From: Rhynchonema sp. JSB1_4 | Lineage: Eukaryota > Nematoda > Chromadorea > Monhysterida > Xyalidae | Direction: 5' to 3' | Assembly: GCA_030248065.1 (NCBI GenBank) | Contig: JASAMV010005414.1 | Span: forward strand, 1-64,000 | Length of the DNA stretch: 64,000 bases | Shown here: positions 2,271-47,095 of the stretch, in pieces | Layout of the letters: every line of letters begins with the position of its first letter | Position numbering within the stretch: the first letter of the stretch is position 1 | Made by a program: the position numbers and the translations under genes | Notes under the pieces: generated by a model | What the model was told of the DNA's origin: nothing | The model's input: only the letters and a program-made list of their open reading frames with translations | Database searches by the model: none

Positions 2271-2628
2271 CTACTTATCATCGTTATAATCACTGGAATC
2301 ACCGGATTTGTCAGTCAACAAATTCAAATCAACGAGCACATCATAGTTCAATGGGTCACACACAAATGAATGCAAATAACGACCGTCTTTCTTGGTCTTC
2401 TCAACAACAATAGGCCTGCCCAAATTTTTAGAATCACGAAGAACAAGCACTTTATTTTTGTTCAGTGGTTTAGCACGCAAAGCAGACAGCACAGACACAG
2501 ATTTATGGTGAATAGAACGTTGCATTTCAGTGAGGTCATTGCGCAACCAGACGGCAGGTGCCGTTTTATCGCGCAATGCCGACACGCCATTTTTACTCAT
2601 CAATAACCGTTTCGTCCAGCTACTGTGT
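2271..2628 (-). pseudogene. Upstream part of the same LINE frame, closed by TAG
   Basis: This segment is in the same frame as the EN-RT region and is separated from it only by one TAG (2271-2273). It encodes a charged stretch that includes VLVLRDSKNLGRPIVVEK and ends SSDYNDDK. I recognise no domain in it. It could be the C-terminal end of an ORF1, or the N-terminal extension of a single polyprotein interrupted by one amber codon. The frame stays open further 5' (to about 2780), but that sequence is made of GGGCC-rich repeat, so I end the element near 2628. It is probably 5' truncated here. Confidence 0.5.
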
Positions 2629-2737
2629 TCGGGCCGGGCCGGGCCGGAGATTTGGGGGTACGGGTCGGGCCGGGCCGGAGATTTGGGGGCTCGGGCCGGG
2701 CCGGGCCGGCCAAACCCGGCCCGATTGCGACCTCTGA
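2629..2737. repeat. GGGCCGG-rich fragment, end of hAT-like family 3
   Basis: This is a block of GGGCCGGGCCGGAGATTTGG units ending CCCGATTGCGACCTCTG. That end closely resembles the right terminus of the element at 50703-51773 (CCCGATTCCCACCTCTG). The block abuts the 5' end of the LINE. Similar GGGCC blocks lie at 48770-48800, 49847-49905 and 52220-52280. Confidence 0.6.
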
Positions 2738-3769
2738 TTCTCAAACGAAAAAAATATAAAAAGACGTTTTTCTCTGTCATTGATTTTTTACTCGACGGAG
2801 GAGTTTTATTTTTATGTATAACAGCGATGATATATACTGTAATTCAGTCCGAAGTATTCGTGCGTGTACCATTACAAGCCCCATTGTCGTTGGGTTGGGT
2901 GATCATGGTATTTAAATCACCTGCTGCACTTGCTTTTCGCTTAATATTGCTACATTTTCCAGGTGTATCCCTCTGAATAATCTTCGGGTTCCGCTGTGGC
3001 TTTCTCTTTACGATCATTCCCATTTTGATCAAGGGAGTCGTGGACGGCGGGTAAATCAGCAGGTCATGTTTAGTTCTCAGCGGATGATGGTCAATTGCTA
3101 CATTCTCATCATCATGGCTGAAGTCATTGCCGCCCATGCGCCGAATCAACATCCTCGAAACCGTATCGCTGCCAATCATTGGGCAGTAACACCCTGGGAC
3201 CTTAGTTCACTTACGAAAACCCAACGGCAATTTTCAGGGCCACCCCAGATATCCTGTGCACGACCCGTGCCCAGTGGTTTTTAAAAAAAATTTTTTTATT
3301 AAAAAAAATTTTTTTTTAAAAATTCGTTCCAAAAGTTAAAAAATTTTTTTTTTATTATTTCAAAATTCGAAAATTTCTCCATTTTTTGCTCTGAAAGTGC
3401 TATTTTTTGCATAAAAATTGCTACTGTTGACATCACCTGACCTTACCATGGGTGTATTGGGTGCCATAATCGTTGTTTTGTGGCATCTGGACATAGTGCA
3501 CACACTCACATGGCCTCTCATATGATCACACATGTACATGTGACTGGGTGGGCATGCATTTATCCATGCAACAGACCCGAAAGCAGTGATTCGGTGTGAT
3601 ATTCACTCTATATTTACACTGTTTGTCGCATATTTGCATTGGTCGTGTGCCAAGAGGCAATAGTTTCACCCAAATTTGCCGTCTTGGGTGTCACAAAGCC
3701 ACACGAAGGCACCCACACCACGTGGGGGAAGCGTACGGGTGTGTGTACCTGACTACTGTTGGTACTCAT

Positions 3770-4755
3770 CAGGGTTGAAAAAAAAAATTTTTATTAACGA
3801 GCTTTTTTTTTAAGAAAAAAAATTTTTTTTTGACGAAAATTTTTTTTATTAGAAAAAGTGTTGCAAACGACGTTTCAGGATAAATGAAATCGATGCAACA
3901 TATTTTTCAAAAATTGAAAAATTTTCGCCTGAGACCCAACTTGTGTGGTGACACCCGGTAGTATTGTGCAGATTCTATGGAATCCTACCAGTGTGAGGTT
4001 GATGTTGACTAACGATGTTACTCTAATGTATTGTAGCATGCCGTACAACGTATTTTAATGCATCTAATGCCGTATATCTGATATACGACCATCAAAATAT
4101 CGATTACAGCCCAAATCTTGCGTGTCAGATCGACTTTGCGCGCCCGGTTTTGCACCAGACTTATGTATATACATGTGTAGTAGCATGCAGTGGTATTGGT
4201 CGCACAATGACCATATGAGAATCCATCCAAAACCACCTTCATTTTCAGGATTGCAAAGATGAGTCACGCTTAACCACTGCGCTATTTGTATTTCTCACAA
4301 AACATTTTCATCTGAAAATAAACCAACCAGTCAACCACGTTTTTAATCCCTGAAACATTTCGCTTACTGCATACTTTATGTGTGATTACACGTTGGCGCG
4401 CAATGTTAATTTGAATTTTCTGTCTTGTCAATTCAGGAAAAATTTTGGATGGATTCTCATATAGTCATTGTGCGACCAATACATTATCGGTGCCACATCA
4501 CTATAAAAGACCATCCCCGCGCATCCCTGTACGGATTTGGGGACAATACAGGGCGCCGCAGGCGCGATTTTGGAAAATTGTCCCGTCCACAGAAAAAAAG
4601 TGACAATTTTTTGCCTCGAAAAAGGCCATTTTTGGACATTTCAGCCCATTTTGGGCAACTTTTTCTTATTAAAAAAAAGCAAAATCTGAGTTTCAAAAAA
4701 AATTTTTTTTAAAAATTTTTTTTTTAATTAACCACTTTTTTTTGAAACAACCCTG
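3770..4755. mobile_element. hAT-like miniature element, family 1, nested in 3272-4942
   Basis: The ends are CAGGGTTG...CAACCCTG, with the 8-bp target duplication GTACTCAT at 3762-3769 and 4756-4763. The interior is a reversed version of the element at 15534-16252: long A/T runs near both ends, and a GC-richer core with TGTATTGTCCCCAAATCCG-type sequence. It carries a further insertion at 4196-4479. Confidence 0.9.
4196..4479. mobile_element. TA-targeted MITE (Tc1/mariner-type), family E, innermost insertion
   Basis: The inverted ends are TTGGTCGCACAATGAC, flanked by TA at 4194-4195 and 4480-4481. The uninterrupted version of the target is visible in the sister element: 15534-16252 reads GCAGTGGTACATTATCGG (reverse orientation), with a single TA where this copy has TA-element-TA. 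Other copies are at 16375-16648, 19106-19373 and 57900-58174. Confidence 0.92.
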
Positions 4756-4950: not shown

Positions 4951-6378
4951 CCCTCAGTTGACCAGATACTCGAGGTTGTTTCCAGTAGCATCAGAATATT
5001 CATGGAAATAAAGTTGGAACTCAAAAAACCCCAACTTCGGCTGTGTTTGGGCACCTGCTTTGCTACAGTATAGGATCAGACCGGTCTTGTGATCACTTCC
5101 ACTCAAGGGCGGATCCAGAGGGGCACAGGGGCTATGGCCCCCTCTAGAGTCCCACAAAGTTTTGCAAGAGGATAAAAACAGAAAAATGTTTACAGCCGTC
5201 CTGTACAAATCTGCAATCTTTTCAAGGTTTACATAGTCAAAGATTTCTTCGTTAAACTGGATATAAAGCATTGTGTGAAGCGTGATGCGTGGCGAGTAAT
5301 ACACAAAACAATCCTAAAATTCTGGCCCTTTTTTACGTTTTTACGTTTTTCTTCCGCTGTAATTCTAAGCATCTGTGCTAAATCAAAATGGTTATCAATT
5401 ACTAATAAAAATTCTCAAGTAGTTATCTCCAGATCCTGTGTTTTTTATTTTCAAAGCCCTAAACAATCACAGGGAGCGTAAAACGCGCCATTACTTGGTG
5501 TGCTGTGTTTCGCTGAGGTCGCACCGCCGCCAGTATTGTTGGATTAAAAAAGTAAGGCACTTTTTTAATTTTAGAATTTTAAACAGCAGGTCCATCTCCT
5601 TTTTTCATCATTTTCTGGCATGCATCCGTTCTTGGTTGTGCCTTCCGGGCTGCAAGTTTGGAACAGGCCTGGCGTGCAGAGGGGTATTCGCACATGATCA
5701 CCCAGCGCATCAATTAATTATTCCGCCCAGCATCTATCGAAAATGTTCTTCTGTGACATCACAACGCTTTTAGGGATAGCGAGATTATTTAAAGGGTATC
5801 CGCCATATATGTATATTCGACCAAAACCAATCTCAATGAAACTTGGCACGGTGACTGGGTTTGGTCCAAAACACTCACGGCCAAGAAAAATTTTTCCCAT
5901 GTCAGCTCCCTGTATGAGCCCGAAGGGCTGAAACGTAAAAAATTTTAACCCTACCACCGCACCATCAAAATAAAATACCGATATGTTTCGCATGTTCTTA
6001 ATGTGCCGTTTGATCACAAATGTTTCATAAACGCCTTGACTATAATTTAAAATTATACTCACTTTTTTGGCACTACCACCACAGCTCGCTCTACTTTGCC
6101 AAAACCACGCTAATTTTAGAAAAAAAATTTTCCGTTGTATTTTTGGGCCACATAGACAGCACACAGAGCTTTACTATAAAATAGGTAACAAAGCCCATTT
6201 ATCACGCAATTCAAGCGATCAAAGACCAATTTCCCATCGCTGCCATTTCCCAAGTTTCGACCAAAGTTCGCTCAACTGTTGTGAGCCTCAACTTTTTGGC
6301 CCTTTCCTGGGGACCCCAAGCACACTTCTATGTCATAATTTCCTATTTTAATAACGATGTACCAAGGTGATATACTGT
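4951..6378. other. Mostly unassigned sequence with one uncertain ORF
   Basis: No gene with splice support was found here. At 5104-5150 there is a CAAGGGCGGATCCAG block similar to one at 48660, probably the end of another miniature transposon. A 148-codon minus-strand ORF at 5718-6164 is AT-rich and matches no family I know. I leave it as uncertain. Confidence 0.4.
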
Positions 6379-6982
6379 ATGGCACGCCACATAGTAAAAA
6401 TATAGTTGTTGTTAATTAAGTGCGAAACTATGTTGGTTCATCTGCATACTTGGAGGTACGAGCAAGAAATGAATTTTACACAAAATCCACCGCATTAACA
6501 AATTTTCGCTTCCGCCTACCTGCTGCTGTGATGGAATTGTGGCATTTACTGTCCGATGAAGCCCCAACGTTATTGTTGTTTATCGATCAAAATCCAACAT
6601 TCTAGCTCTAACGTACATATTTTGGACAGAAGTCGTTCAAACGAAGGCACCGTAGACGCTGGTCCGGTTACAAGACCGGTCGTAGTTCCAAGTCCAACGC
6701 ATGGACCTCAATGATCACGATTTTTCTAAAGATACGTTAGAGCTAGAATTTTGGATTTTGATCGATAAACAACAATAACGTTGGGGCTTCATCGAACAGT
6801 AAATACCACACTTCCATCACAACTGTGGGTAGGCTATAAATATGACGAAAGCGAAAATTTGCTAAAATTATGAATTTTGTGTAAAATTCATTTCTTGCTC
6901 GTGCCTCCAAGTATGCGGATGAACCAACATAGTTTTGCACATAATTAACAACAATTATATTTTTACTATCTGGCGTGCCATG
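6379..6982. repeat. Long palindromic (fold-back) element
   Basis: The left half, from ATGGCACGCCACATAGTAAA, is repeated in inverted orientation ending TTTACTATCTGGCGTGCCAT. The two arms stay alignable for about 230 bp each, around a spacer near 6610-6730. Both arms contain the same roughly 60-codon reading frame (plus at 6420-6605, minus at 6743-6940) with similar protein sequence, including DEAPTLLLFIDQNP. A fold-back transposon or an inverted duplication is likely. No clear target duplication was seen. Confidence 0.75.
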
Positions 6983-7372
6983 TCAATTTCTTGATCACAA
7001 TTTAGATTCACAATTCACATTTCTTGATCCGGTGTTGACATTTTAGATGTTCGACTGCAGCTACTGTGCGCAATTCAAAAACAAAACTTGACGCAGCGTG
7101 CGAGTATACCCCGAGAATGCGGTTAGGAACGCAATATACGCACCTGCGCATTTTCAGGTCACAAATGCCGAAAACTGCGGCTCGGGCAGAAGTTTTGAGA
7201 TCCGGTTTTGTCTGGTGTCTGCGTGTAACGGTCTATGAACCAATTCTACGCGCTCAATACGCCTAAACATTCGATTTTGCATATAGAGGCGCATTTGCGA
7301 CCAAAGTCGGCGGAAGATACCCAGACACTTTGCACACCTACTGGCTTGCTGTGCATATACATGTACAGTATA

Positions 7373-7692
7373 GTCCGTCCATCGGCTCATGTCACTTTGT
7401 GTTGCTGCTGGCTGGTTTGTTCCCTTCCTCCACGTTCTAATGAAAGAGAAATTGAGTGTGACCGATTTTGCAAAAAAACTAAAAAAATGATAAAACGTGT
7501 CGAAAAAGATTGAATTCGATCAAATTTAAAATTAAATTTAATTAAAATGGATAAAACACGTAGATTTCGTAAAAAAACAATTTAGGACCGAAAATAATTT
7601 TTTCCGAAACTCAATTTCTCTTTCATCAGGACGTGGAGGAAGGGAACAAGTCGGCCAGCAGCATCACAAGTGACGTGAGCTGATGGACGGAC
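7373..7692. mobile_element. TA-targeted palindromic MITE, family G
   Basis: The ends are GTCCGTCCATC...GATGGACGGAC with TA at 7371-7372 and 7693-7694. The inner inverted repeats include TTCCCTTCCTCCACGT and its complement. A second full copy is at 24156-24497, and a lone end lies near 17713-17735. Confidence 0.85.
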
Positions 7693-8362
7693 TATCTGTA
7701 TGTACCATGGTCGTGTAAATGTACAGCATACAGTATGTGGCTTCTCCACTCAGTTTCAGTTACACCTGCAAACACTCACACACACACAGCTGTTTTCAAA
7801 GAGCTGTTCAGCTACCACGCTAGTTGAGCTTTGACAAACACGTTCTCAAACCGTGCGCAACAGTGTTGCAGCTGAGAATTAGGGCTGACTTTTTCTTTTC
7901 TTGAAAAATGTCACGAACTTGTAGCAATTAAACATAATGATATACAGTAGCATAGCAATTTTAACACAGGGGCTTTAAGTGGAAAACCCGGGTACTTGTC
8001 AAGCGTGACTGTTTCTGCGATAACCTATCTGGTAAGTGAGCAGGGGGCTTATCCAGACTTAACGTCGGATAAAAAGTGTTGAACTGAAAAGTCGCCGAAT
8101 TTACACAATACTCGTTTGTTTTGTTTTTCCAGCGTTTCTGGATTCTTTCTCGACAAAAAACATTGGTGGTCAGGTCGAGGTCTTATGACCCGGACCCCGG
8201 ACTGTTTGCTGGAGAAAAAATCAAGCAAGGCAATTCAGCCAAAGCCAAAGAGACGTTACCGAAAAAGCTGTGCGAACCTCTCTTCTGTGTGATTCAATCT
8301 CGAAATCAATGCAGATTTTTTCCTGTTTTGGAGACAAAATTGCAGAAAAATAATTTCCAAAA

Positions 8363-11357
8363 ATGCTGAAATTGTTTGCGCTCAGTCTGTTGTTGGGCGT
8401 GGCGCTGGCCGATTTTGACGAACAGAAGTTGTTCAAACGTCTGTTTGAGGACTACGAGCGGGTCCGACCGGTCAAGGATGTTTCAAAACCGATCAACATC
8501 GAGTTGCAGCTCAATTTGATCAGCTTTCATTACGTAATAAATCTTTATTTTTTCGCAAAATTTATGTAATTTAGTCATTTTTGCCAAAACAAACATTTCA
8601 ACTTTTTTGCAGAGCTCCGACCGACGCGCCATGACCGCTCAGTTCTACTTGTTGATCGTGAGTTTTGTGATGTTTCAATCCTTACCTGATCCTTCTGAAT
8701 CATGTTTATCGCCGTTTTGTCATTGCGAGATATTTCCTTTCCGCAACCTTAGATTCGAGCCTGTGTGTGAGCATTTGCCTGTAATCCACGCCTGAACATA
8801 CACCATTGGGTTACCGAAGAATCACTATCTTGGAGATATCAGGAATTTCCAAGCAAACGTCGATGCTCATCGTGCGACGACTCAGTACCGGGGCACAGCG
8901 CAGGCCCGACCATTCAGGCCCGGCCGATTTAGGCCCGGCTGGGGCCTAAGTCTATAAGCCTATAAATGGGTCAAACGTGCTGGGAATGAATCGGTCTGAA
9001 AAACTGGCCCTGGAAAGGTCGGGCCTCTGCTTCCGGTCCTGAAAAGTCGCAGAATAGTCAATTTCGCGCACAGAAATGGACGGATCCACTGCTGACGTGG
9101 GACAAGAACGAATACGGGGGTCTGAGCCGTATCATTCTGCCACCGAATATAGCCTGGACGCCTGACATCACCGCATTCATTGAGTGAGTTCGTCGTGAAA
9201 AACTCACAGTTGGGAGCGCTTCGGACCAGTTAACCGAACACCGGGGGGGGGGGGGGGGTCCGAGTCCGCATGGTTTTGTCGACGCAATAATCCACTCACA
9301 CGGAGGCATGCCTGACCGAAAGTAATTTTGTTAAGTTGAATCGAATCTTTTCGATAACGCTTTACCACACAAATATTTTTTTTACTCCCAGCGTTTCGTG
9401 ACCGACTAAAGAAACTTTTTCAATTGAAAACCTTTGATGTAATGGGTAAAAACCCAGTTTTGTTAACACTCACGGCGCTGCGTAACATCAGGGAATCAGG
9501 GAGCCTGTCGTGTGAGCTGCTTGAAAGACCTTGGATCACACCAGCTTGCCAAACAGTCAAGTCTGACAGCATTTCTGTTGGGCCCACTACAAGACCTCTG
9601 TATCACCGAGCGGACCCTGTGACGATTCAGTCCCGGGGCACAGATTCAGGCCCGCCCAATTCAGGCCCGGCTGGAGCCGAAGCCTCAGCCTATAAATGGG
9701 TCAAACATGCTGGGCCTGAATCGGCCGGGCCTGAAAAACTGGGTGTGAACTTCCGGGCCTGAAAAGTCGCGGAATACCCCTTTTGTCTCACAGAACGCCA
9801 TTGTGGGATGATGTTTCACAGCCTGTATTTATATTACAGCCTCAATGACGACAATGATGCCGATGACGACAGTGAGTACCGCGTACAGTCGGACTACAAC
9901 GGTCAAGTGATTCACGTACCAGTGCGACAATACACCTTCCCGTGCACGCACACAAAGGACCACAAGATCAGTTGCTCGATTGCGCTGGGCTCGTGGGCCT
10001 ATGGAGGTATGTACAGTATACACTGTTTGCTCTTTTTCTGTGCTGTGATTCGATGCGTGGTGTTGTTTTATTTTTCGTCTTGTTTTCCAAGCGCTGTGTT
10101 GACGCTTGTGTTTATACTACCCCCTGCCGTTTTCTGATCGTGTCAGAGTCAGACTTCTAACTGCGGGTGAGTGCACAATCTTGGTACAAAAACTTACCTG
10201 GATGTTTCCCTTCTTGTCTTGGTTTCGTGGACAGATGGTCAGGGTTGGATTAAAAAAATTATATTATCGAACTTTTTTAAAAGAACTTTTTAAATTTTTT
10301 TAAAAAATCACTTTTTTTATTTCGGACCCCCAAAAAATTGGTTTCTTGAAGAATGAAATTTCTGAAATCATGTTAGTTAGGTATGTTTTGAGGGACACCA
10401 AAGGGTACTTCTCCACTGACTTGCATGTTTACGTCGATCACCTGCGATCTAATCCCTTTGGTCATGACTTTGAGAATCTCGAAGGTAACTTTGTGACATG
10501 ACAAAGGAAAGGCCAACCTGCTGCTTGTGAATTTGGGGATAAATTTGAAGAGAGATAAAAACGAACACCATATACTCATTTTGTGTCACAAAAGCAACAA
10601 ATACCATAACTAATCCACGTACACTGCAAACAGGCGAGCAACGTGGAGTCTGTCGATTGCTTGCGACACGCTCAATAACTGTACAGTATAGGGTATGGGG
10701 TGTACTATATTATACATGCAGCGGTTGTTGGGATATCTGGGAACTGTATAGTGCATCACAACACGATTTCAAACTGAAATATAAGCGCGCAGGCAATTTG
10801 TTGAGAATCATGAGCAATAAAACACATGAAAACATGCCTTTTTATCTTAAAAAAGTCAGAAAATAACGAAAAAAAAGTAAAAAATAATACAAAAGTGGAC
10901 TTACTTTTTAAAATTTTAAAATACAAGAAGTGACCCACTTTTTTAAAAAAAGTTTTTTACTTTTTTTAATCCAACCCTGCAGATGGTGCACCAGCCCCCC
11001 CCCATCAGCTGGTTCGGAAGTGTACGTACCTACCAAAATAGTTAAATTCAGTCATGTGAAACTTGGCGGTCGACCTCAAAGTAATTCATCATCTTTTCAT
11101 TTTTTTAACATTTTTAAAATACATTCAACTTATTGACAGATTCTTACTGCCCATTCCGTTCAGCTAGTCAACTTTCGCTGTCCACACCCCAGAAGGACAT
11201 GAACATCGACTGGCTGGTGCCGCATGAAAAGTACGCAATTGTGGACACGGACGTGGAACATCACATCAGTGAATTCCCGGGTAGGCTGTTGCATTTACGT
11301 GAAATTTTTGAGATTGTTAACATATTTTTAGGGTGTTATTGTTGTTCAAAAAAATGA
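8363..11357 (+). CDS. Cys-loop ligand-gated receptor ectodomain (nAChR/AChBP-like)
   Basis: Exon model: 8363-8533, 8613-8657, 9074-9183, 9840-10006, 11140-11280, and probably 11332-11357. It is phase-consistent and gives 219 aa. A signal peptide (MLKLFALSLLLGVALA) is followed by an acetylcholine-receptor ligand-binding fold. Visible marks are KWTDPLLTW, the WTPD loop-A motif, GSWAYGG (loop B) and, in the last small exon, CYCC, which fits the paired cysteines of loop C. Differences from the norm are a Cys-loop with 9 residues between its cysteines (FPC...ISC) instead of 13, apparent Tyr for the loop-D Trp, and Phe for the loop-A Tyr. The frame stops three residues after CYCC, and no transmembrane segments were found in the next 3 kb. 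It may be a soluble acetylcholine-binding-like protein, or a truncated receptor gene. If the last intron (57 nt) is retained, the same frame still ends at the same stop. Confidence 0.8.
8877..9054 (+). repeat. Intronic repeat copy 1 (CAGGCCCGG-rich)
   Basis: It runs from a CCGGGGCACAG start to GCCTGAAAAGTCGC and ends about 20 bp before exon 3 of the receptor gene. The same repeat occurs at 9613-9776 in the next intron, also shortly before an exon. A diverged relative is near 16815-16920. Confidence 0.7.
9613..9776 (+). repeat. Intronic repeat copy 2 (CAGGCCCGG-rich)
   Basis: This is the partner of 8877-9054. Shared landmarks in the same order are CCGGGGCACAG, CAGGCCCGGCTGG, CCTATAAATGGGTCAAAC and CCTGAAAAGTCGC. 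It is either a mobile repeat that landed twice in the same gene, or a local duplication of an intron end. Confidence 0.7.
10240..10979. mobile_element. hAT-like miniature element, family 1 variant, in receptor intron 4
   Basis: The ends are CAGGGTTGGATTAAAAAA...TTTTTTAATCCAACCCTG, with the 8-bp duplication CAGATGGT at 10232-10239 and 10980-10987. It has AT-rich subterminal arms and no coding capacity. A short diverged relative is at 14598-14791. Confidence 0.9.
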
Positions 11358-18501: not shown

Positions 18502-21500
18502 CTACGCAAAGACAAAATTCAAAGTAAAAAATGCACAAAGCAACATGCTTTTTCGAACCTGAAAATCCGACGCCGGACTCATTTTGCCAATTCCACTGTC
18601 AAGATCGACGCTGCGTTGAGTCGACGATTGTAGGTGATCGATGCACGTCGATAATCGATTGGCACTGCTGATCACCGATGATGAACTATCGATTTTGGAT
18701 GCCGCCAGCAATTGGGCGACGCTCGTGATTGGCTATGCGATTTGAGAATGAGAGTTATACGCCAGGCTCAGTTTGAAATTTGGCCTAAGCTTAAGCCTAA
18801 AGCCTGGGCCTGGCGCCTGCCTCAGCCAGAGACAAAAGAACTATGCAGAAACCCAAACAGTTCTGTCGTGCTTATTCTCGTTACCTGATGTGACCCGTTG
18901 GTGGTATCGAATGAGGTTGAATTAGATAACAAAGATATTCGATTATTGTTGTTGTTGATGGGCGGAGTGGTGTCAAGCGTTGTGCTGCTGGACTGGTCGT
19001 TGCGAAGGGCCACCTGCGTCATAAAAGCTGATTGGATTTATGGCGGTTAACGAAAACATAAAATATCTGCGAATGATAGTATTGTCAGCCGTTCTTCTTC
19101 TGATATTGGTCGCACAATGACCATATAAGAATTCATCAAATCTATCCTGAATTTCAGTCACTCTTAACCACTGTGCTATTGGTGATTCTCACAAAACATT
19201 TTCACCTGAAATAAATCCAGCAGATCAACCACGTTGCCGCAGGTCTGAAACATTCTCTTTACTGCATGCTTTGTGTGCGATCACGCAACGCAACGTCACC
19301 ACCCCGTCACTTTCCCTCTTTGCGATCCAGGAAAAAATTTTTATCAATTATTATAAAGTCATTGTGCAACCAATATCAACTAGAGTTGGTCGGATCGGAT
19401 TGGTGGTTTAGACTCACACGGAGCCACTTAATCTCGGCTAACTTAAAAACTATTCATGTTTGGCCGATGAACAGTGGACGAAATCAGTGCCACCAGTAAA
19501 TCTCAAAACATCCTTAAAATTCAAAAAAAGGTCACGGGACAAACGCTGGACCGTTCTGATGCGATCACAATGTTTGATATCTTAGTGCCCGAGAAACAGA
19601 AAACATGCTGACATTCCCATCACAACAAAGAGTGTACACAGTCAATCACATACTTCCACACCGACCGACCTGTAAGTTCTTCATATCGACCATCGCATAC
19701 GGTCTTATGGGCACCTGCAGTCTCTGCACCGACGTCGGCAGCACATGCACTGCCCGTTCAAGTCGTTCCAAACGGTCCGGCTCGGTGCCGTTACGATTGC
19801 GTTGCATCTCGATTTGCAATTTGCGTTTGTAGTTGTGCATCCGATCGCAGGCCAGCAGCTGCTCGGGCGGGATGGACCTGAGAAGAAAGTATAATGAATT
19901 ATTTTCGTGTGTGATTAGTGTCAGACTCCGTCGTCACGTCACCGACGAGGCACGTCTGAAGGCAAACTGCACCAACATGAGCGCGATTTCGCAGCTGGCA
20001 GAATCGTGAAACATTCTGACGTTGCTGCTGATTTGGAACAGCTTGCTTATCAGAAAACGCTGTAGAACCATTTTTGTTCCAGAATATGGACGATTCAATA
20101 TAAATGATTGTGAGTTGCATATTTTTAATGAATTTTGAACTTTTTAGTGAATGTACAGGTTGTACTAGGTTCACACCATAGGTCAACACCAACGCCAAAG
20201 CATTTAGCTTGTATTTGCGATCACCCATCGCCAGCACAAAGCGAGTGTTGTAGCCAGGGTTGGGCAAAAAACGTTTTTTTTTTTCAAAAATCGTTTTTTT
20301 AAAAAACGTTTTTTTAAAACGCAAAGATGACCAAAATATGCCACAAAAAATGGAAAACGCTCATGTTGAGAAGAAAACGTGGTTAAATGAAGTAATTCTA
20401 TGCGTTCTGAGGCAAAATAAACGGGTTTCAACCCTTTTCTGGCGAGTTGCTAAGATCCCATATCAGACCCGCATCATGGGACCAACTTTGGCCGGGGTCA
20501 TCACTGAAAGTCAAACTCCGTATATCGACGTATGTATCTCGACAAAGTATAAATTGGTCGAAAATTTTTTGAAAAAAATGGGACAAAAAATTGATTTTCC
20601 TTGATAAGCAGGGTACTTTCCCTGAAAAATAAGGGAAAATCAAGAAAATTCAGGATGTAAAAAACGAAAAACGACCCAGGCGTTTTTTTGCAAAAAAAGC
20701 GTCGTTTTTTTAAGACAAAACGCCTTCGTTTTTTTTGCCCAACCCTGGTTGTAGCCTGTAGGTATGTATAAGTGGTGCGGGTTCCGTGCTGTTCGGTGTT
20801 CAAAGAACCACCACGCGTAACAGCTGTTACTATCCTTCCGTCGGGTCTAGACGACAGAACGAGTTCCACCGGAATAGACATTATCGACGGGCGTTTCACA
20901 TCCCCTTCGAAATGACCCAATCGGAGATTGTAGTCAGCCATCCTCAACTCTCCCTCCGGTTCGAAGTATACACACTTCACGATCGGTTCGTACAGTACGT
21001 CGTACTCACGTTTCTGTTTAGTTTGGTTGGGACCTCCAGTAGCACTTTCAGGCGTGCCACAGCCTGTTTCATCCTGTTGGCTGCTCATACACTCTTCAAC
21101 TGAGGCACCATGCCACAGGGATCGCGTCTTTCCGACTGGCACTATACGCATCGACACACTGACGGTGTGCGACTGCACTGGGTAGTCCAGTTCGGGTAGG
21201 TCGGAGTACCGTGTGCGTTCTCTGAGCGCATTCTCAAGCACATTCGGCATGGACAACATCGGGTCCTCATTCCGACACATATCGTTGTATAATCCACAAG
21301 TCACGGGTTCGGAACCCTCTTGCAGTGGCATGCCCGGACTGTGGCGGTCTCCATATGGTAGCACTCGTATCGGCACTCGGTTATCGAGTATCTCGCCCCA
21401 CAGGTCAAACAATTGACGCGTCTTGGCGGATCTCGGATCCCGTGCGCTCTCGATCTCACACAATCCGCGAACCTCGGCGAGACACCGGCCATCAAACTCG

Positions 21501-24500
21501 CACAAAGGCTCATACGTCAGCGATATCACGTTCAAATACTCCGAAATCCTGGATGCAAGCAATCTATCATGCGGTAGCTCTCCCGCATACAACCATTTCA
21601 ACAGATGGTCACTGTATCGGTGCGTGGTGAACACAATGTCAACCACTTCTTCATGCAACTGCCACGGTTCAGCGAACCTGGGTGCATTCAACCAATCCTC
21701 TTGCCACGATACCTCGAGTATCTGGTCTTCATCGAGCTCCTCCTGCGAGTACAGATCGAGCACGTTCTCCCTGGTCGATTCTGACTCAGACTGATATCTT
21801 TCACGGATCCGTGTACGTCCGGAATCCGTATTCGAACTCACGTAACGGTCCTGTCGCGCCTGTTGCGCTCGTCCGGCTTTCTGCCCTTGCGACACTCGTC
21901 CAGTGTCCTGCCCTTTCACTCCCGGCTCTTTGGCCGCACAACTCTCATGCGCCTTATGCGCCCTTTCCTCTTTCGGACCCTCCGGTCCCTCCTTCGCGTG
22001 GGCTCCCTGCCCTTCCTTCACACGGGCTTTCTGCCCCTCCGTTGTACGATCCTGTCTCTCTTCCACTCGGACTCCATGTCCCTTCTCCGCACGGATCTCC
22101 TGCGCCCTGCGCGCCCGTGCTTCCTTCAACCATTCATCGTACAACACCTGCGCCCGCAGCGCCTGTTGAGCACTCAAAAGCTCCGTCCGCCTGGACCCAG
22201 CATGGAACCCCTGCGCGTCCTGCGCTTGTCCAGCTCTAATGTCCGGTCGGTACACATTTCCATCCGTCTGTCGAACATCAGCTAGCTCTGACCGCACGGA
22301 CCTAGCGTGGAACTCCTGCGCCGCCTGCGCCTGTCCAGCTTTCGTGTCCGGTCGGTACACGTGCCTAGCTGACTGATCCGATCGACCACAGTTGCGGTCC
22401 CCTGACTGATCGGTAGCCGCGCTCCAGCGGTCTTTGAACTGAGTGACTCCCGCATCCGACCCCTGGTCCTTCGACTTACGGTCGATGCATTCCGAAAACC
22501 CAAAAGCATGGTTCTCGATAAATGAAACATCACTGTCACTCTCATCATCATCCCAGAACTTCCACTCGGTCCCTCCGCGACCGATGGACAACACTGACTC
22601 GCCCGACTGACCTATCCATCCGCCTGTCTGATCTCCTTGCCTCGGCGGACTGCTGCGGTCATCGGCGGTTCTCGTCCGGGAATTGGCATCCGGCATTGTC
22701 TTGTTCGACCGGGAATTGACGTCCGGCATTGGTTTGCGACGAACGAATTCGCCGACTGAAGAATGCATCGGTGCTGCGAATCAATCAAGCCACACCGATG
22801 AGTCGACGCGCGAATCAATCAAGCTTGTCGACGGATTAGTACCCGGAGTGCGAATCAATCAAGCTTCTCCGGACCGAGGTGCGAATCAATCAAGCTTCCT
22901 CGGTACCTGATCTAGAAAATCTGCAAAAGCTGGAAGTCCCAGTCAGGTTAGGTTAGGTACATAAATATATAATACATGCAATAGGACGAATCACAAGCCA
23001 AAACCAACGTTGCGAATCAATCAAGCGTCGAAGGTTTTTTATTGGCCTGGAGACGAACGACCTTTTCCAATAGTAGGTCACTGTGGGTATGGCGGAAGAT
23101 TTGAGTCTAACTACTAAAAGTGAAGATTGCTTATATAGTTTTTGGGACGTAGTGTCTAAGGATACATCACACACATAAGGTATGGATTATAAAAACAAGA
23201 AATATTACTGCACGCAAAGTATGCAAATTTACCATACGACACACGCAAACAAGGAGAGACTTAATCCCTCACTCGAACGATCGCTAACCACTTCATAACG
23301 AACGTTCACACAACACAGTCACGCAAGGGAACATCTACCGAACTGCTCATTACGCAGGTTGACTCGCCTGCACGCATAGTGCTTTCCGGACTGACTTCGG
23401 AACCGACCAATCACAGTACCGGTCTACTTATGTCCCTTGACTTCACGTGTCCCTCACGTGTCGTATTCCAAACGACACCCACCACCCCACTCACCACGCG
23501 CTGAACAGTTGATCCTGTATCGGTTTGCTTTGTTGATTCTCGTACTCGACTTCTTTGGTTTTGTTGTCGGTCTGCGGCAGAAACACGCTCGTCAGCACGA
23601 CCGTTCGACATTCGGCATCTTGCGTCGGCAGAAGCGGGCTGCGCGGTTGTTTCTGAATGTTTGAAATTGGCATATGCATGGGACAGAGCATAGATTACAG
23701 GAAAGGTTGGGCGTCTTACTCGCCAAAGTGGCCAGCACTTACGTTTGGTGTGGTTATTCTGTATGCTGCAGTGCGTTACTGATGCATTTATACAAAGTCC
23801 TTTCTCAAAATGGCACAGGAATCGAAAACTTCATCACAGATTGGCGTTTTGAGGACAATCCACACGGTGCCCCAGCTCGACAGTGCCATTTCACAACATG
23901 AAAATTGACAAAAATTAGGCACAAAGGACTCTGCTTCAACCTGATTCTCGCCCAGCCACACAGCGCGCAATGACTTGAGACACGCAATCAAGGTGTACGG
24001 TAGCACGCGCAGTTGGTTGCCGATCAAGTTGAGCATCGAGAGGCGGTAGAAATGACTGAACACGTCGGGCAGGTGCACAACGCGGTTGTGGCTGAGGTCG
24101 ACTATCGATAGATTACGACAGCCGCAGATCTGGAACGGGGCATTGACGAAGTATAGTCCGTCCACCAGCTCATGGCACTTTGTGTTGCTGCTGGCTGGTT
24201 TGTTCCCTTCCTCCACGTTCTAATGAAAGAGAAATTGAGTGTGACCGATTTTGAAAAAAAACTAAAAAAATAATAATAATTAATTAATTAATAATAAATG
24301 TGTCGAAAAAGATTGAATTCGATCAAATTTAAGATTAAATTAAATTAAAATGGATAAAACACGTCGATTTCATAAAAACCAAAATTTATGAGCAAAAATA
24401 ATTTTTTCGAAAAGTCAATTTCTCTTTCATTATAACGTGGAGGAAGGGAACAAGTCCGTCAGCAGCATCACAAAGTGACATGAGCTGATGGACGGACTAC

Positions 24501-27152
24501 ACAGTGCATCCTCTTTACAGCGACACGATCGGCGGGAGTCGGGCATTTCCGGTCACAATATGAGGCTCGGGTACCAACGAATCAGTAGTTGACCGCAAAC
24601 AAGTGATTGCGTAACATTTTTGTGCTGCATAGCCTGACTACACTGCCTTCAACTGATATGTAACCAAGTTTTGTACTTTTGGCTGAATTTTTCCCCAGTG
24701 CAGAGCTGCACCAAAAATATGTACCTAGGCTCAATTTTCTTTTTCAAATTCAGAACCTGAAAAACCCCACCATTGAGCACGATAGCGGGCAACTTCAAAC
24801 GATCAAACACATACCGTCAGTACCGTGGTCATTTTGTTCCAGCATTCGTACAGTTCAATGCTGTTCGCATTAAAGAACTGTCCCGGTGTCGGTAACAGAT
24901 GTCACCGGCGGCAATAAGAAAGCTGGACAAATTACAAACAGGAGCAAGTAACCTGTCTGGGTAGATCGGTCAATCTATTGTGCGACAGGTAGAGCTCAGT
25001 GAGCGATTTCAGGCATCCGATTTGGGCGGTGATTTGACGCAGCTGATTGTTGCGCGCGGATAGAACTCGTAGATAACGACATCTGAAACGTATATAAACG
25101 CCAAGATTCATTTGTGATCCTTAATTCAGATCGCACCATTGCGATTAAATTATACACACATGAATTTCCTCTCGCTCGTCAACAAGTTTTCAGCGTCAAC
25201 GCTGTTATTTTGTTTCAAAGTTTTATGATAATGATCCGGTGCACTGCCCGCGGCTGTGAGAACGGGCGAATCAGGCCCCCAAAAATACAGTATATGCCAC
25301 ACAGTTCGTAGTTCACTCCCAAAATTCCAAGTCCGTGTAGTATAGCTTGTATACGAGCAACGATAAAGGCACAGTGGAAACCCGAAGACCTCACCTTGCT
25401 ACTGAATCAGGTATCTCCGTCAACTGGTTATTATCAATTCTGAGCACTTCGATAAAAAGCGCATCAAAGTCCGGAATGCATTTGAGTTGATTCGATGTGA
25501 TATCCAGATGTTTTAAGGCGGCACAATATTCCAACTGAACGGGGAAAGCAGCCAAGTAATTGTTGGACACGTCAAGATGGGAGAGGTTGAGTAGACGACA
25601 AAGCGCCTGAAACATTTGTGTGTCGAGTGTATAGTTTCGCTGAATTTGAACTGTGGCAAAAAGGATTTAATGCCGCAACCGGAGTCATCGAACCGGCTCT
25701 GCCTTATAGTCACGTTACGTTTACTGAATAAAGAGTAAGTAAAATCTGACTTTCTGATAGCGCACTAATTTCGACCAACGTAAAAATTGTTGCTCTTGCG
25801 TGTCGGCGAACAATCTTTACGCTGGTCAAATTAACGGCATCAGTAACTTTGTCATTAATATCTTTGACATGAAAAAGGCATCAAGGTAAAAAGCCGATCC
25901 AATCACCAAGCTTGATGGCATAAGGACGAATTTTCAAATGTTTCGTCGGCAGAACTTGGAGAATATCAGTTTTGCAAAAAAGAAAAAACAAAGGCTTGTA
26001 AAATTAATGTAACGAATTATAATTCAGCCTGACCATAGGCAACTGCAGCAGTTCATTGACAGCAATATCGAGCACGCTCAGGGCACACAGGTCGCCAATG
26101 GAGTCGGGCAGTTTCTGCAGCTGGTTGTTGTGCAGAAGTAGCGTGTGCAGTTTCTGCAATCGGCCGACGCTGACCGGCAGCGATTTCAGCCGATTCTGCG
26201 CCAGGTCCAGATGTTTCAGCTGAGTGAGCAGGCCGAGCTGAAATACATAGATGTGCGCAGAAGTTTCTGCGTTGTGGTCAGCAAAAAATCTAAATTTGTG
26301 TCCAACAAAAATTTCAGCCCATATGCTGAATCAGTATCCAGTACCTGTTTGGGTAATTGTTTCAGCGAGCAACCCATCAAATTCAATTCTGACAAAAGAT
26401 GATAATTGTGCAGAAATGACGGAATGCAGCCGATGCTGTTCAACGAGACGTTAAGCGACTCGAGCTGTTTGCAGAATTTCAGCGTGTCTGGCAGCGTGCC
26501 GAGTTCTGCAAAAGTCGGCCTTGAATAAAAACAGAAATAAACAATATTTCTGCAACAAAAATTGCCAGAATTTTTCTGCACGCACCATTTCTGCCCAAAT
26601 CCAGCACGGTCAGATCTCTCAGCGCAGCAATGCTCGGCGTCAGTTCAGTGAGGTGATTGTCGTGCAGAATCAGCACCCGTAAATGGCGGTATTCGAAAAT
26701 GCGCTGAAAAAATTATGAATATTATGCAACTGCAACAAAGTGTGCAGAATGCTACATATTCAGCCTGAAATTAGTAAAAATCTGAACTTCCTACCTCCGG
26801 TAATCTGTCCAGTGCATTCGAGCTCAAGTCAATGTACTCAACGGTAACCGAGTGACCTTGAAGGTTGGCGTTATGGGACACTGAAACAAAGAATGGCTCA
26901 TGAAGACAGAAAAGCTGTTATGCATAGATGTGTTTCACTTCATGAGGGTCGCAACAAAGAAGGAAGACTGTAAATCCAGTCCATTGATACAGTACTGACC
27001 AAGAGTAGTGGCCAGATTATTGGCACTTGGCACGGGTGTCCACGTGAACTTGTGCACTCGCCGGCAGCCGGCGCGTGATCGACGGATGGTGATGGAGGGG
27101 GAGGTGAGTTTACGCCACAGCCATTTCATACTGCGTGCGTCACTTTGCGAGT
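18502..27152 (-). CDS. LAP-type leucine-rich repeat protein (Scribble/LANO/LET-413-like)
   Basis: Twelve exons on the minus strand: 27152-27000 (ATG at 27129), 26880-26795, 26703-26586, 26505-26345, 26237-26034, 25606-25395, 25082-24953, 24129-23941, 23652-23495, 19877-19670, 19013-18894, 18732-18502. All phases fit, giving 648 aa. About 14-16 leucine-rich repeats of the LPxxIxxLxxLxxLxLxxN type fill residues 45-410. They end with LPYTLIACLKSLRAVWLGENQ, matching the last repeat of LAP proteins (LPYT...LxALWLxENQ). A LAP-specific segment follows (PLLPTQDAECRTVVLTSVFLPQ). The tail is Ser/Asn-rich. LAP proteins set epithelial polarity at the basolateral membrane. Scribble, Erbin and LET-413 carry PDZ domains. 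None is seen here, so this is LANO-like or the tail is incomplete. The last exon's final 18 codons, after a possible donor, are doubtful. Confidence 0.88.
19106..19373. mobile_element. TA-targeted MITE, family E, in LAP intron 10
   Basis: The ends are TTGGTCGCACAATGAC...TTGTGCAACCAA, flanked by TA at 19104-19105 and 19374-19375. It is inverted relative to the 16375 copy. It lies 92 bp upstream (in transcript sense) of LAP exon 11. Confidence 0.87.
20204..22768 (-). CDS. Unknown 755-codon GC-rich ORF nested in LAP intron 9
   Basis: The uninterrupted frame 22768-20501 encodes 755 aa. I recognise no family. The N-terminal third is hydrophilic with short internal duplications: MPDxNSR twice, then a 33-residue unit beginning VYRPDxxAGQAQxAQ twice. 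Next comes an Ala/Arg/Glu-rich coiled-coil-like segment at residues 205-290. A compact, more hydrophobic domain spans about residues 350-680, with LLKWLYAGELPHDRLL, CEFDGRCLAEVRGLCEIE and VKCVYFEPEGELRMADYN. The last 75 codons come from a hAT-like insertion (20255-20747). Without it, the same frame would end at a TAA near 20204-20206 after about 13 more codons. It is markedly richer in GC than its surroundings. LAP exons 9 and 10 join in phase without it, so it is a separate same-strand unit, perhaps a gag-like or virus-derived gene. Confidence 0.6.
20255..20747. mobile_element. hAT-like miniature element inserted in the 755-codon ORF
   Basis: The ends are CAGGGTTGGGCAAAAAACG...CGTTTTTTTTGCCCAACCCTG, with a perfect 8-bp duplication GTTGTAGC at 20247-20254 and 20748-20755. 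It replaces the original C-terminus of the ORF with Lys/Arg/Phe-rich sequence. Confidence 0.9.
22766..22904 (-). promoter_or_regulatory. Array of four hairpins with one shared loop, ORF leader
   Basis: Four adjacent hairpins: 22766-22800 (8-bp stem CATCGGTG/CACCGATG), 22802-22832 (GTCGAC/GTCGAC), 22843-22872 (CCGGAG/CTCCGG) and 22873-22904 (ACCGAGG/CCTCGGT). Each loop is 18-19 nt and contains TGCGAATCAATCAAGC or a near copy; in minus sense it is AAGCTTGATTGATTCGCA. The stems are unrelated in sequence but perfectly paired. A fifth loop copy at 23011-23026 has only weak arms. The ATG of the 755-codon ORF (22766-22768) is the end of the last stem. Confidence 0.85.
23130..23137 (-). promoter_or_regulatory. 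Possible TATA box upstream of the hairpin array
   Basis: TATATAAG in minus sense lies about 225 bp upstream of the hairpins and about 360 bp upstream of the ORF start. The position would suit a leader that includes the hairpins. It rests on sequence likeness only. Confidence 0.3.
24156..24497. mobile_element. TA-targeted palindromic MITE, family G, in LAP intron 7
   Basis: The ends are GTCCGTCCACC...GATGGACGGAC with TA at 24154-24155 and 24498-24499. It is the sister of 7373-7692 and ends only about 26 bp from the acceptor of LAP exon 8. It contains an extra TAATTAATTAATTAATAATAA stretch-like AT expansion near 24270. Confidence 0.86.
25768..25838. repeat. Small hairpin related to 17243-17405
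   Basis: TTTCGACCAACGTAAAAATTG pairs imperfectly with CAATCTTTACGCTGGTCAAA. It lies in LAP intron 5. Confidence 0.5.
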
Positions 27153-42900: not shown

Positions 42901-45900
42901 TATGGTGGTCCTCTCCTCCTCACCAGGGCAGTTGGGTTTGGCCAAGTGGACCTAAGTCAAAAAGGATCTGACCGCTCAGCGGCAGTGTCGGTTTCGAGGG
43001 TGGGTCGAAAATCCCGAAAAAAAATTTCGGGATTTTTAAGGGATTTTGACGGCCACCGGTTTCGAGGACGTCTCGACTAAATGAAGCGCTTTAAAAACCA
43101 AATGCACACACAATACCTCCACCCTACCACACAATCCAGCACCGCGTTATGTTTTCAACAGCCCAGACGGAACAGAAAATAATTAAAAGCAGATTAGCTC
43201 GCACCACCACTGCATCTATCCGTGAAAACCGGCCGTTTTTCTTTGATTTGCTTTCCTGATAGTGTTTGATGCATGTACCGAGCGTATTGTTTATTGCGCA
43301 CCTTGAATTGAATAAATTTATGATACGAAACATTTGCCCACCTTTCCATACGTTCGCGAAACTTGCCCACATCGAGATCTCCTCCATTCTGCCAGGCCGG
43401 CTGTGTGGCCAGAGCGGTCGACCAACCGCTGAAATTCATCATATAAATTTTATTAAAATCTGCAAATTTTTTTTCATAAATTATCACATTTTTACAAAAA
43501 AATAAACAAATAAATTTGTCGTACTTTCTGGAGACGTGTCGCGCGAAGAAAAAATCCTCCGCCAAATAGCACCCATGCACGTGCATACCGCCAACGTCGT
43601 CCAGCGCACGTTTACGAATCAGGGACGACATTCCTATGAAAAAATTAGAAGATGAATAAAAAAATTAGATAATATATCTGTATGTGTCTCGTGTCCTCCG
43701 TGTGATCAGAAAAACCACTTTATAGCGCCAGTGGAGTGGCCGAAAATTTGGCTCGAAAAGAATATATAAGTGGCAAATTGACATGCTTGGTCAGTCACTA
43801 GGTGGAAGGTGCACATAACGGAGGGCACACTGCAATAAACGTAATCCAGAAAGGCAATGAACGCAGCAAGAAAGCCAAATTCAAACATTGACAGAATAAA
43901 ATTGACCACTCACCAGTGGAACATGTTATTCGGAAGAAATCAGCCACCAAGTACATTCGCGCGTGCCACGTGCCAAAGTAGACCTGCAGCAGCAATCAAA
44001 CTTGATTATCGGTTGCCTTTCAGTCAAATAAAATCAAGTAACGAAACGCCTTAATTCCTATAATCTACCTGGATTATTATTTCATTCGGTGCTTTCAGAC
44101 GGAAGGTATCGGGTATCGGCACCCAAAAAGTACCGGGTGTCGGCATATCCCCGATACCGATCCTTATTCGGTGCCATAACCAGTCACCAAAGGTTGAACA
44201 AAAACTGGCGTCATTTTTTCGTCAAAAAATCTGTTTAATCTGAAAATAAAGCCGCGGACCTTTTCGAGTGTCGCAGCAAACCCGGCGCGATCGCAGGCAT
44301 AGGGCATTTGTGTGACGATCGCCACATCATCTCGCATTGTTAGCACCATGTCGGTCAGAGTGTCGTGTTTCACTGAAACAACTGTTGCTTTTTTTAAAAA
44401 AAATATTTTTATTGATTTTGACGAATTTTTGGGCGTTTCGTAAGCTCTGTACTCTGCACGAATAGTGGGCGAGGATCAGCAAGGAAAATCTCGAACACCA
44501 CAGTGGATACGTGAAGAATCCACGCGTGGAGTAAAGTGAAACATTTACTCACTTCACCAGAGCCAACGTTTACCACGGCCACGGGATGTGACAAAACAAA
44601 AACACGGCTCTTTAGACACGGTTTTTGACCTTATATCGCAGAAAATTTTAGCTTTTCAACAAGACAACAATTAAAATCAACCAACTTCTGAGCGTGGCAT
44701 CTGAGATGAGAACGAAATCGTACTGCGCCGCGCGATACGCCGGCATCATATTGTTGATTTTGGGATTCAGTCCGACATTGTCTGCCTCTGCAAATGTATT
44801 TCTAGGTTTCACTGCTTTGACAGCACAATGACATAAGATGACGGTTTCGTTAAAGTTGGCATATCAATCAGGGTCAGCGACATATTTCAATTCACAATAT
44901 AGTTGTAAATTTTTTTCGGAAAGTATATATTTACTGGAAAAAACCGTTTTTTTTCACCTGCAACTATTATTTACGAAGAGGAAAAATCAAAGTTCTGTAC
45001 AGACAAGTTCCGAAGCCAAGCGACGCACTTGAAAATGGAATTAGTATTCTGAATGGTCGCAACAAAAGATTGTGACGACCGACCAGTGAATATCCGACAC
45101 CTGCCCGCTACGGATGGATATTTGTCCAGCAACGTTCGCACCACGTTCAGCGACGGATCGTTCGGCGTATGTACACAAAAGAGTAATTCGAACTGAAATA
45201 ATAGTGGCGATTCGTTTGTGATTTCTGGTGTTTTCCGCAGAGTACTGGAAAGAAAAAAACGCAAAAGGTCGATGCACAGTCTATTAATCTTCGTCCCGCT
45301 AACGAGAACCACACAACTGTGAGTAAGCGTGTCTGAAAACACCGTATCGTATCCACAATAAGAAGACCGTTCATTTGCTCATTTCTGGGTTCAACTTCAA
45401 CCACACCAAGTGGGTGAGCAAGAAACTTAGCCGCACGCTCAACCAGAGTGGGGTCGGTAAAATTGAGAGCAGTCCCACATCAGCGGGGTCCAGGTGCGCT
45501 GTGAACTTGATGTGGTGCGTAAACAAAAACAAGTGTCGCCAAACAAAATGCAGAACCAACTTTTGGATAGTCGAGTTGAAAGAACGACTCTAAGTTATTG
45601 AGCAAGTTCGGATCGACGCCCGTCAGCGGCTTGATGATCGACACGCCGGGTAGCAGCGATCGGTCGATGCTGTTCGCATTCAATTGTTGGCGTGACTTGC
45701 CTCGGTGGAATATGCAGTACCTGCAGCAACAAGCCAATGCGTCGGTGGTTCTTCTACTGGCCAGACGTACAAATTTATCATTTGTACACCAGCACCAGGC
45801 TGTAGGATCAGACCAGCCTCCCAGAGTTTTCATATTCAGCAACCAAGAGAAAATAAAAAAATCAAAATTGGCCGTGGATTTTGTCCATTCCCATTCAAAA

Positions 45901-46423: not shown

Positions 46424-46639
46424 TCAGCTTGCTGGCTGACTGCTGGCCTCACTTTCTCTCTCCTTAGTCCTCCGCTCTGATTTTGATTGTTCGTTTGTTT
46501 TAAATTTTGTTCGCGGCGGGTGTGATAACGCGCTCACGCTCGTTCCGTCCTCACAACGAACGAACGTGATAAAATATGTCGTTTGTTGTCGTTTTCTGAA
46601 GATTTTCCAACAGTTATTTACCTATATTCACACACAGGT

Positions 46640-47095
46640 ATACTGGCAGGCGGAAAAAAAACCGGTTTTTTTCCGGAAAAAAAAAACCGAAAAAAAACCG
46701 TTTTTTTTCCGAGACCCGAATACTTTTCCATTTATTTTTCCGTGGGTACCTTTTCGGTTTTTGATCGGAAAAATATCGGTACTTTATTCCAATTTTTCCA
46801 AAAAACTGTAATGCAAAACTGATGAGTTTTTCGATTTCAGCGAAAAATTGGCTCGAGCACAAAAATTAACCGGCCCAAAATGGGCCAAAAAGCGTGTAAA
46901 CCAAGTGTTTTCGACTGACTTCAACACTCTTCAAGAGCACTCTCGTCACTTTGAACAAATTTTGCACTGAAATTGTTATATTTTTCGAAATTACGTTCTT
47001 AAGTACTGGAAAAGTATTTGGAAAAAAACGGTTTTTTTTCGGAAAAAAAACCGTTTTTTTTCACGAAAAATAAAGAACGGTTCTTTATGACAGTA
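46640..47095. repeat. AT-rich element with AAAACCGG runs at both ends
   Basis: Both ends have alternating GGAAAAAAAACCG/CGGTTTTTTTTCC blocks, near the inverted pair GTATACTGGCA and TGACAGTATAC. The right part (46930-47095) matches 51950-52090, including TTTTTCGAAATTACGTTCT and AAGTACTGGAAAA. It lies just upstream of the glucosyltransferase gene. Confidence 0.6.

What the first reader, a model, noticed from the sequence alone, without database searches (positions are those of the whole stretch)
22766..22904. Four tandem hairpins with unrelated stems but one shared 18-19 nt loop
Seen directly: stems CATCGGTG, GTCGAC, CCGGAG and ACCGAGG each pair perfectly with their partner across a loop holding GCGAATCAATCAAGC. 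Different stems with a constant loop is the pattern left by compensatory change, so structure and loop sequence both seem to matter. They are packed within 139 bp, just before (and overlapping) the start codon of a 755-codon orphan ORF. A fifth loop copy lies at 23011. Repeated hairpins with a common loop in a 5' leader recall packaging or protein-recruitment signals of RNA viruses and retroelements. That reading is inference.
Basis: partly seen in the sequence, partly recalled or inferred. Interest (0 to 1): 0.92.

Follow-up and report, generated by a model that had tools for sequence, protein, structure and literature searches.

The report
Hairpin array in giant retroelement leader
The repeated hairpins are real, conserved base-paired structures in the leader of the long terminal repeat of a very large virus-like jumping element in an animal genome, sitting on the start of its giant coding frame, where they probably serve as docking sites that mark or control the element's RNA.

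Summary
The four hairpins and an imperfect fifth (22766-23038, minus strand) lie in a ~2.7-kb repeat with about 100 copies (104 left, 112 right ends). It is the LTR of a giant Ty3/gypsy-like element: contig C2207 holds a 41-kb copy with two LTRs, a TATG target duplication, a tRNA-Gln-like primer site, a purine tract, and RNase H and integrase domains. The window copy is a lone LTR truncated at its 5' end. The 'orphan ORF' is the LTR-encoded start of a frame that in C2207 stays open for 5013 codons, through the primer site; its AUG lies in hairpin 1.

The 'constant loop' is structured and not constant: GC, a two-base bulge beginning with U, GA paired with UC, then a variable tip. Stems keep pairing through compensatory change (52 double-change cells against 19.9 in shuffles). 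The loops occur as two alternative sets that differ in all five hairpins while the stems hardly differ. Best mechanism: a multivalent RNA docking site around the Gag-type start codon, for packaging or translation control, most likely bound by the element's own protein. Identity and structure are shown; partner and function are inferred.

The parts
20771..23477 (-). lone LTR, truncated: lacks the 5'-most ~62 nt that full copies have (coding sense)
   Evidence: alignment to 20 fetched loci, end comparison, junction
20767..20770 (.). TATA, possible remaining half of a target duplication
   Evidence: seen; the other side is lost, so not testable
20771..22768 (-). 666 LTR-encoded codons of ORF1; the 755-codon ORF reads on into flanking DNA to 20501
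   Evidence: dN/dS 0.445 over 11 copies
22766..22800 (-). hairpin 1; the ORF1 ATG (22768-22766) ends its 3' arm
22802..22832 (-). hairpin 2
22843..22872 (-). hairpin 3
   Evidence: not found by model R1
22873..22904 (-). hairpin 4
22905..22948 (-). longer, nearly invariant hairpin between 5 and 4
   Evidence: RNAalifold pairs, columns 106-149 of A1
22948..22977 (-). 9-codon upstream ORF
   Evidence: same ORF read in copy L225; window coordinates
23000..23038 (-). hairpin 5, with internal loops
23038..23043 (-). AATAAA, probable poly(A) signal
   Evidence: present in 19 of 19 full units
23130..23137 (-). TATATAAG, probable TATA box
   Evidence: present in 18 of 19 full units

Best explanation
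Shown: the hairpins belong to the leader of the LTR of a giant Ty3/gypsy-like retroelement. The coding-strand sequence carries five copies of one module (GC pair, bulge beginning with U, GA/UC pair, variable tip) on stems that change but keep pairing. The start codon of ORF1, whose frame begins inside the LTR and runs through the primer site, lies in the last hairpin. Inferred: the array is a multivalent protein-docking site on the genomic RNA, most likely bound by the ORF1 (Gag-type) product; binding marks the RNA for packaging and closes the start codon, switching the RNA from translation to packaging.
For: LTR nature: paired units in C2207 with outer TATG, primer site, purine tract, RNase H and integrase in one 1591-codon frame. 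Leader position: TATATAAG in 18 of 19 and AATAAA in 19 of 19 full units, 94-100 nt apart in 18; AUG in hairpin 1 in 17 of 19. Pairing: 28 distinct hairpins, 93.9% of cells paired (21-51% when slid), 52 double-change cells against 19.9 in shuffles, covariation 0.404 against 0.165, 0 of 500; leader alignment, 5 pairs changed on both sides against 1.3, 0 of 500. G.U cells 44 against A.C 4. Likenesses: Ty1 leader, coronavirus SL5 with repeated loop and buried AUG, GACG tetraloops.
Against: No binding partner, transcript or packaging was tested. ORF1 has no recognisable Gag domain in its first ~2570 codons. RNAalifold gives other pairs for hairpins 3 and 4. In one search the percentage paired hardly exceeds shuffles (92.5 against 91.8) and pair types do not exceed them; pair types do not either (75 of 500). 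G.U against A.C by pair position is 13 to 4, P 0.05, and hairpins 3 and 4 fold better on the plus strand. The LTR-encoded protein does not change with the loop set (98.8% identical). All copies come from one genome and share ancestry.
Confidence: 0.5

Rival explanations
1. A host RNA-binding protein, not Gag, binds the modules; they serve export, stability or translation control of the unspliced RNA, with no role in packaging.
For: The AUG sits in hairpin 1, an upstream ORF precedes it, and the LTR-encoded protein is the same with either loop set.
Against: Repetition of one module beside the start of a gag-position ORF fits packaging at least as well; no host factor was identified.
Confidence: 0.22
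2. No selected docking function: the module copies spread along the leader by template switching during reverse transcription, and the loops are a recombination by-product.
For: All five loops are identical in the common set, whole-set differences exist, and copy L235 has lost a hairpin.
Against: Stems with unrelated sequences stay complementary, with double changes; copying of loops does not produce that.
Confidence: 0.12
3. DNA-level sites: the common loop contains TGATTGAT, which I recall as a Pbx/Exd-Hox type site; the array would be a downstream enhancer.
For: Five same-strand copies of the site just downstream of a TATA-like motif.
Against: Alternative loops (60 matches) lack that site although the hairpins stay; the covariation of the arms is unexplained.
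Confidence: 0.08
4. A TAR-like switch: a transactivator binds the U-bulge of the nascent RNA and raises transcription.
For: The first bulge base is T in every module of the slot table, with G-C and A-U above it apart from two exceptions, as in HIV TAR (recalled).
Against: Resemblance only. No Tat-like protein was sought. Four of the five hairpins lie downstream of the probable poly(A) signal.
Confidence: 0.07

Closest known systems
Burro, giant gypsy-like LTR elements of planarians (PMC6431247 and PMC11410931, passages)
   Same: Very large (over 30 kb with LTRs; internal up to 25 kb), huge ORF1 (4,873 aa against an open frame of 5013 codons here), gypsy-like enzymes.
   Different: Burro ORF1 begins with a retrotrans_gag domain and CCHC knuckles; none found here in the first ~2570 codons. 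Pol here lies in a separate 1591-codon frame. No hairpin array or LTR-internal start is mentioned in the passages I saw.
Ty1 leader of yeast (PMC5454406, abstract and passages)
   Same: Structured leader that includes the GAG AUG and serves translation, packaging and start of reverse transcription; that the GAG start lies inside the LTR is recalled.
   Different: Ty1 uses a pseudoknot and kissing loops, not a repeated bulged module; only tens of coding bases lie in its LTR (recalled), against about 2 kb here.
Coronavirus SL5 (PMC12513883, passages)
   Same: Same loop motif repeated on different stems; AUG embedded in the structure.
   Different: Hexaloop UUYCGU in a junction; unrelated virus.
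GACG tetraloops of alpha- and gammaretroviruses (PMC516450, passages)
   Same: Hairpin loop shared by several retroviruses, involved in RNA packaging.
   Different: Open tetraloop; no bulged module.
HIV TAR (recalled, no call)
   Same: Bulge with U first, then G-C and A-U, in the R region.
   Different: Single hairpin; no Tat-like protein known here; most hairpins here lie beyond R.
Ogre of plants (PMC6431247, passages)
   Same: Very long LTRs (1.9-6.5 kb).
   Different: 16-25 kb in plants; extra ORFs lie in the 11-13 kb internal region, not described there as starting in the LTR.

Membership tests
LTR retroelement | two direct terminal repeats flanked by a short target duplication | tested here: met
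   C2207:6314-9083 and 44629-47366, outer TATG on both sides; 15 of 19 units with both ends have their own 4-bp duplication, and two of the other four are this C2207 pair
LTR retroelement | primer binding site after the 5' LTR and polypurine tract before the 3' LTR | tested here: met
   TGGAGGTCCCACCG directly after, AAAGGGCAGGAAGG ending one base before; assignment to tRNA-Gln is recalled
Ty3/gypsy | RNase H before integrase in one pol frame | tested here: met
   PF17919 at C2207:23393-23692 and PF00665 at 25187-25474, both in a 1591-codon frame; BEL marker PF18701 has no match in C2207
Ty3/gypsy | reverse transcriptase domain placed on a tree | tested here: inconclusive
   the RVT_1 search scored only 150 of 822 candidates and lists none in C2207; the sequence could not be fetched
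Burro | retrotrans_gag domain and CCHC knuckles at the N terminus of ORF1 | tested here: not met
   Pfam scan of the first ~2570 codons in four pieces: only DUF6994 at E 0.029, below its cut-off; later part not read
Burro | MATH, BIR, BCL2-like and env-like regions | not tested
   C2207:14801-43299 was not read
retroviral packaging signal | selective binding by Gag and need for packaging | not testable with these tools
   needs experiments
retroviral packaging signal | conserved structure in the leader near the gag start | tested here: met
HIV-type TAR | transactivator binding at the bulge | not testable with these tools
   only the bulge pattern was compared
any Rfam family | score above the gathering threshold | tested here: not met
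   0 matches in the window

The most novel reading that the evidence does not exclude
A five-fold repeated RNA address with exchangeable specificity: the loops are a switchable set of recognition sites in the Gag-start leader of a ~41-kb retroelement. Two sets coexist in one genome and differ in all five hairpins while stems and the LTR-encoded protein stay nearly the same, so that the element can change RNA-binding partner, or escape a host factor, by exchanging loops.
Probability: 0.2. Interest if true: 0.8.

Novelty: new variant of a known kind. Interest (0 to 1): 0.62.

Why it matters
Packaging and leader signals of LTR retroelements outside yeast and vertebrate retroviruses are little known (my recollection). 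Here the copies themselves are a mutational record: one module, five positions, two loop sets and dozens of copies in one genome, which makes the site directly testable. The element is larger than the over-30-kb Burro of the papers seen, with the caution that much of its inside was not read. Its frame begins about 2 kb inside the LTR and crosses the primer site, so a lone LTR leaves a long open frame with no stop of its own, a trap for gene annotation.

Tried and rejected
A DNA transposon without inverted repeats (4-bp YATR duplication, promoter inside, frame open to the end) was my working view until the C2207 pair was seen; rejected by paired repeats, primer site and purine tract. A tyrosine-recombinase circle was considered because the frame would run on across a circle junction; dropped for the same reason. 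Inverted pairs of units as one composite element: such pairs exist, but most fetched units have their own duplications; left as clustering.

The loop motif in bacterial and viral collections: 118 stretches, of which 80 are listed, each with one match, and 76 stretches, each with one match; taken as chance. Protein relatives: none at E <= 0.001 (residues 230-677 of one LTR ORF, 533 aa of the internal part). PDB: none. Rfam: none. Alignments A2 and A4 put hairpins out of register and were not used. A3 took 28 of the 42 distinct strings; most hairpin-5 forms and three chance-like strings were left out; rows whose 3' arm starts one base earlier are out of register and lower its count. A1 has 27 rows (23 distinct) of the 30; L245 (decayed), L248 and L251 (partial) were left out. 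Some L246 pieces were cut off-centre. In one search the L236a protein was read in a wrong frame; one search replaces it. Other same-strand pairs (C308, 28 kb apart; C3615, 10.7 kb) and C1456 were not checked for target duplications.

Full report
WHAT IS THERE. On the minus strand, five exact copies of GCTTGATTGATTCGC lie at 22776-23026. The four named stems are perfect (8, 6, 6, 7 bp); exchanging arms between hairpins gives 1-5 bp, and a random position has a stem of 6 bp or more with frequency 0.012. The fifth copy folds with internal loops. Both strands fold better than shuffles.

IT IS A REPEAT FAMILY. The 15-nt motif occurs 124 times in the host genome (59 forward, 65 reverse; reversed control 0), in the listed places mostly in groups of fixed spacing (100 listed). 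All 20 loci fetched hold stretches that match the window between 20767 and 23477, at 75-99% identity. The ends are AGTGG... and ...TTGCT in window orientation. Of 19 units with both ends, 15 have an exact 4-bp duplication, in coding sense CATG 5, CATA 5, TATA 4, CTTG 1. Pattern searches counted 104 left and 112 right ends; of the first 100 of each, 69 pair up, 58 of them 2.5-2.9 kb apart.

IT IS AN LTR. In contig C2207 two same-strand units lie at 6314-9083 and 44629-47366; their outer flanks form TATG on both sides. Directly after the first stands TGGAGGTCCCACCG, which I recall as the primer site for tRNA-Gln; one base before the second ends the purine tract AAAGGGCAGGAAGG. The two differ at 39 of 2738 aligned sites plus 32 gap columns, among them one lost hairpin. 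The internal region is about 35.5 kb; only its first 5.7 and last 1.3 kb were read. An RT_RNaseH_2 domain (23393-23692) and an integrase core (25187-25474) lie in a 1591-codon frame, in gypsy order. The reverse transcriptase core itself was not seen: that search scored 150 of 822 candidates. The BEL marker has no match in C2207. By coordinate arithmetic pol lies in the -1 frame relative to ORF1; this is inference. What follows the integrase (up to ~19 kb) is unknown and may include nested insertions, so 41 kb is the size of this copy, not proven to be the size of an intact element. C1196 carries a distant relative of the internal part (29% over residues 2-507 of 533), with its own RNase H and integrase.

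THE ORF. In C2207 the frame that starts at hairpin 1 runs through the rest of the LTR and the primer site and is open for 5013 codons. The window's 755-codon ORF is 666 LTR codons plus read-through into flanking DNA. Over 11 copies (55 pairs pooled) the LTR part has dN/dS 0.445, 0.53 in the first 330 codon columns and 0.37 after: moderate purifying selection. No Pfam family above its cut-off in the first ~2570 codons; none in PDB; none in the large protein set for the two parts searched. Calling it Gag rests on position only.

LEADER MAP (inferred from motifs). TATATAAG is in 18 of 19 full units and AATAAA in 19, 94-100 nt apart in those 18. This would put hairpin 5 at the R/U5 border and hairpins 4 to 1 in U5. 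A nearly invariant longer hairpin lies between 5 and 4, next to a 9-codon upstream ORF. The AUG of ORF1 ends the 3' arm of hairpin 1 in 17 of 19 units; in L244 and L247 an in-frame ATG also lies in the loop of hairpin 1.

THE MODULE. In 30 aligned leaders 131 modules were found with a search form that requires T after GC; 117 have stems of 5 bp or more (G.U allowed) and 14 less. Free of that form, the slot table of 27 copies shows T as first bulge base in every module present, T, C or A as second, and GA...TC kept with two exceptions, L231 hairpin 2 and the shortened L242 hairpin 1. Tips differ: TTGAT in most (98 of 131), also ACATAT, GCATAC, ATATAT, TGAAAT, CTTG, CTGAG, TAT and others. In several the next pair forms too, as A-U or G-C or C-G (L251). 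The 'constant loop' is a bulged stem with a variable tip.

COVARIATION. Leader alignment A1, 23 distinct rows: 92.5% of cells paired against 24-47% when slid by 1-3 columns; 5 pairs with changes on both sides against 1.3 in shuffles, 0 of 500; but the shuffled mean for cells paired is 91.8%, and pair types do not exceed shuffles (176 of 500). Twenty-eight distinct hairpins laid over each other (A3): 93.9% paired against 77.8, 52 double-change cells against 19.9, covariation 0.404 against 0.165, 0 of 500 each; pairs with double changes 8 against 6.4 (13 of 500), pair types 18 against 16.3 (75 of 500). A model built from A3 finds four of the five window hairpins (E 4e-10 to 3e-6; it was built on three of them), misses hairpin 3, and finds nothing else in the window up to E 5. 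G.U cells 44, A.C cells 4; by pair position 13 and 4, P 0.05: this favours RNA of the coding strand, not strongly, and hairpins 3 and 4 fold better on the other strand. RNAalifold gives hairpins 1, 2 and 5 but other pairs for 3 and 4. Diverged copies have damaged hairpins (L242) or none recognisable (L245). All copies come from one genome.

TWO LOOP SETS. The pattern GCTNGARYATAYTCGC occurs 60 times (reversed control 0 and 1), at most places with the LTR spacing. Between L246 or L249 (alternative set) and L225 or L234 (common set), 21 of 80 columns differ inside the modules and 7-9 of about 203 outside, gap columns counted; P 8e-8 and 2e-7 for the two pairs tested. Outside differences are larger against the window copy (16-17) and for L247 (15-24). 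Within a set 0-1 columns differ inside the modules in the four pairs compared. Mixed copies exist (L239, L243, L250). L236a has the alternative set but encodes a protein 98.8% identical to that of L234, with the common set. Exchange of the leader as a block explains that body; it does not explain how five loops came to differ while the stems between them hardly did.

MECHANISM. Shown: LTR leader, module, pairing, start codon in hairpin 1. Inferred: multivalent docking by a protein, most likely the ORF1 product, coupling packaging and translation control at the start codon. The Ty1 leader does both in one domain (PMC5454406, abstract and passages); coronavirus SL5 combines a repeated loop motif with a buried AUG (PMC12513883, passages); GACG tetraloops act in packaging (PMC516450, passages). 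These are likenesses of working, not membership.

PRINT. I found no description of such an array or such an LTR in the listings, which cover openly licensed PMC papers only. Burro was seen in passages of PMC6431247 and PMC11410931. The host was not identified.

Noticed in passing
window 23788-26330 (-): Exon-like open stretches with leucine-rich repeats (LRR_8, LRR_4) on the same strand as the LTR, so the LTR fragment lies beside or inside an LRR gene.
   Followed up: no
window 51-695 (-): Reverse transcriptase domain (RVT_1, E 2.5e-33, 756-codon frame) at the window's left end.
   Followed up: no
window 20254-20747: Another dispersed repeat beside the LTR; relatives in L229, L236 and L242 (82-90% identity).
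   Followed up: no
L228 (C739) 1-4556: Two truncated LTRs head to head, with 867-bp inverted flanks 99.8% identical: a palindrome or an assembly artefact.
   Followed up: partly
C5383, C3401, C1888, C5638, C4090, C2268, C5214, C816, C1843: LTR ends of this family cluster as inverted pairs within about 20 kb more often than ~100 copies in 204 Mb would suggest (no test made).
   Followed up: partly
L242 1-3500: Tandem repeats of about 860 bp (82-90% identical) some 2 kb from one LTR copy.
   Followed up: no
C1196:55601-67382 (-): Distant relative of the element: internal-part match at 29% identity, RNase H and integrase in the same orientation; its LTR was not read.
   Followed up: partly
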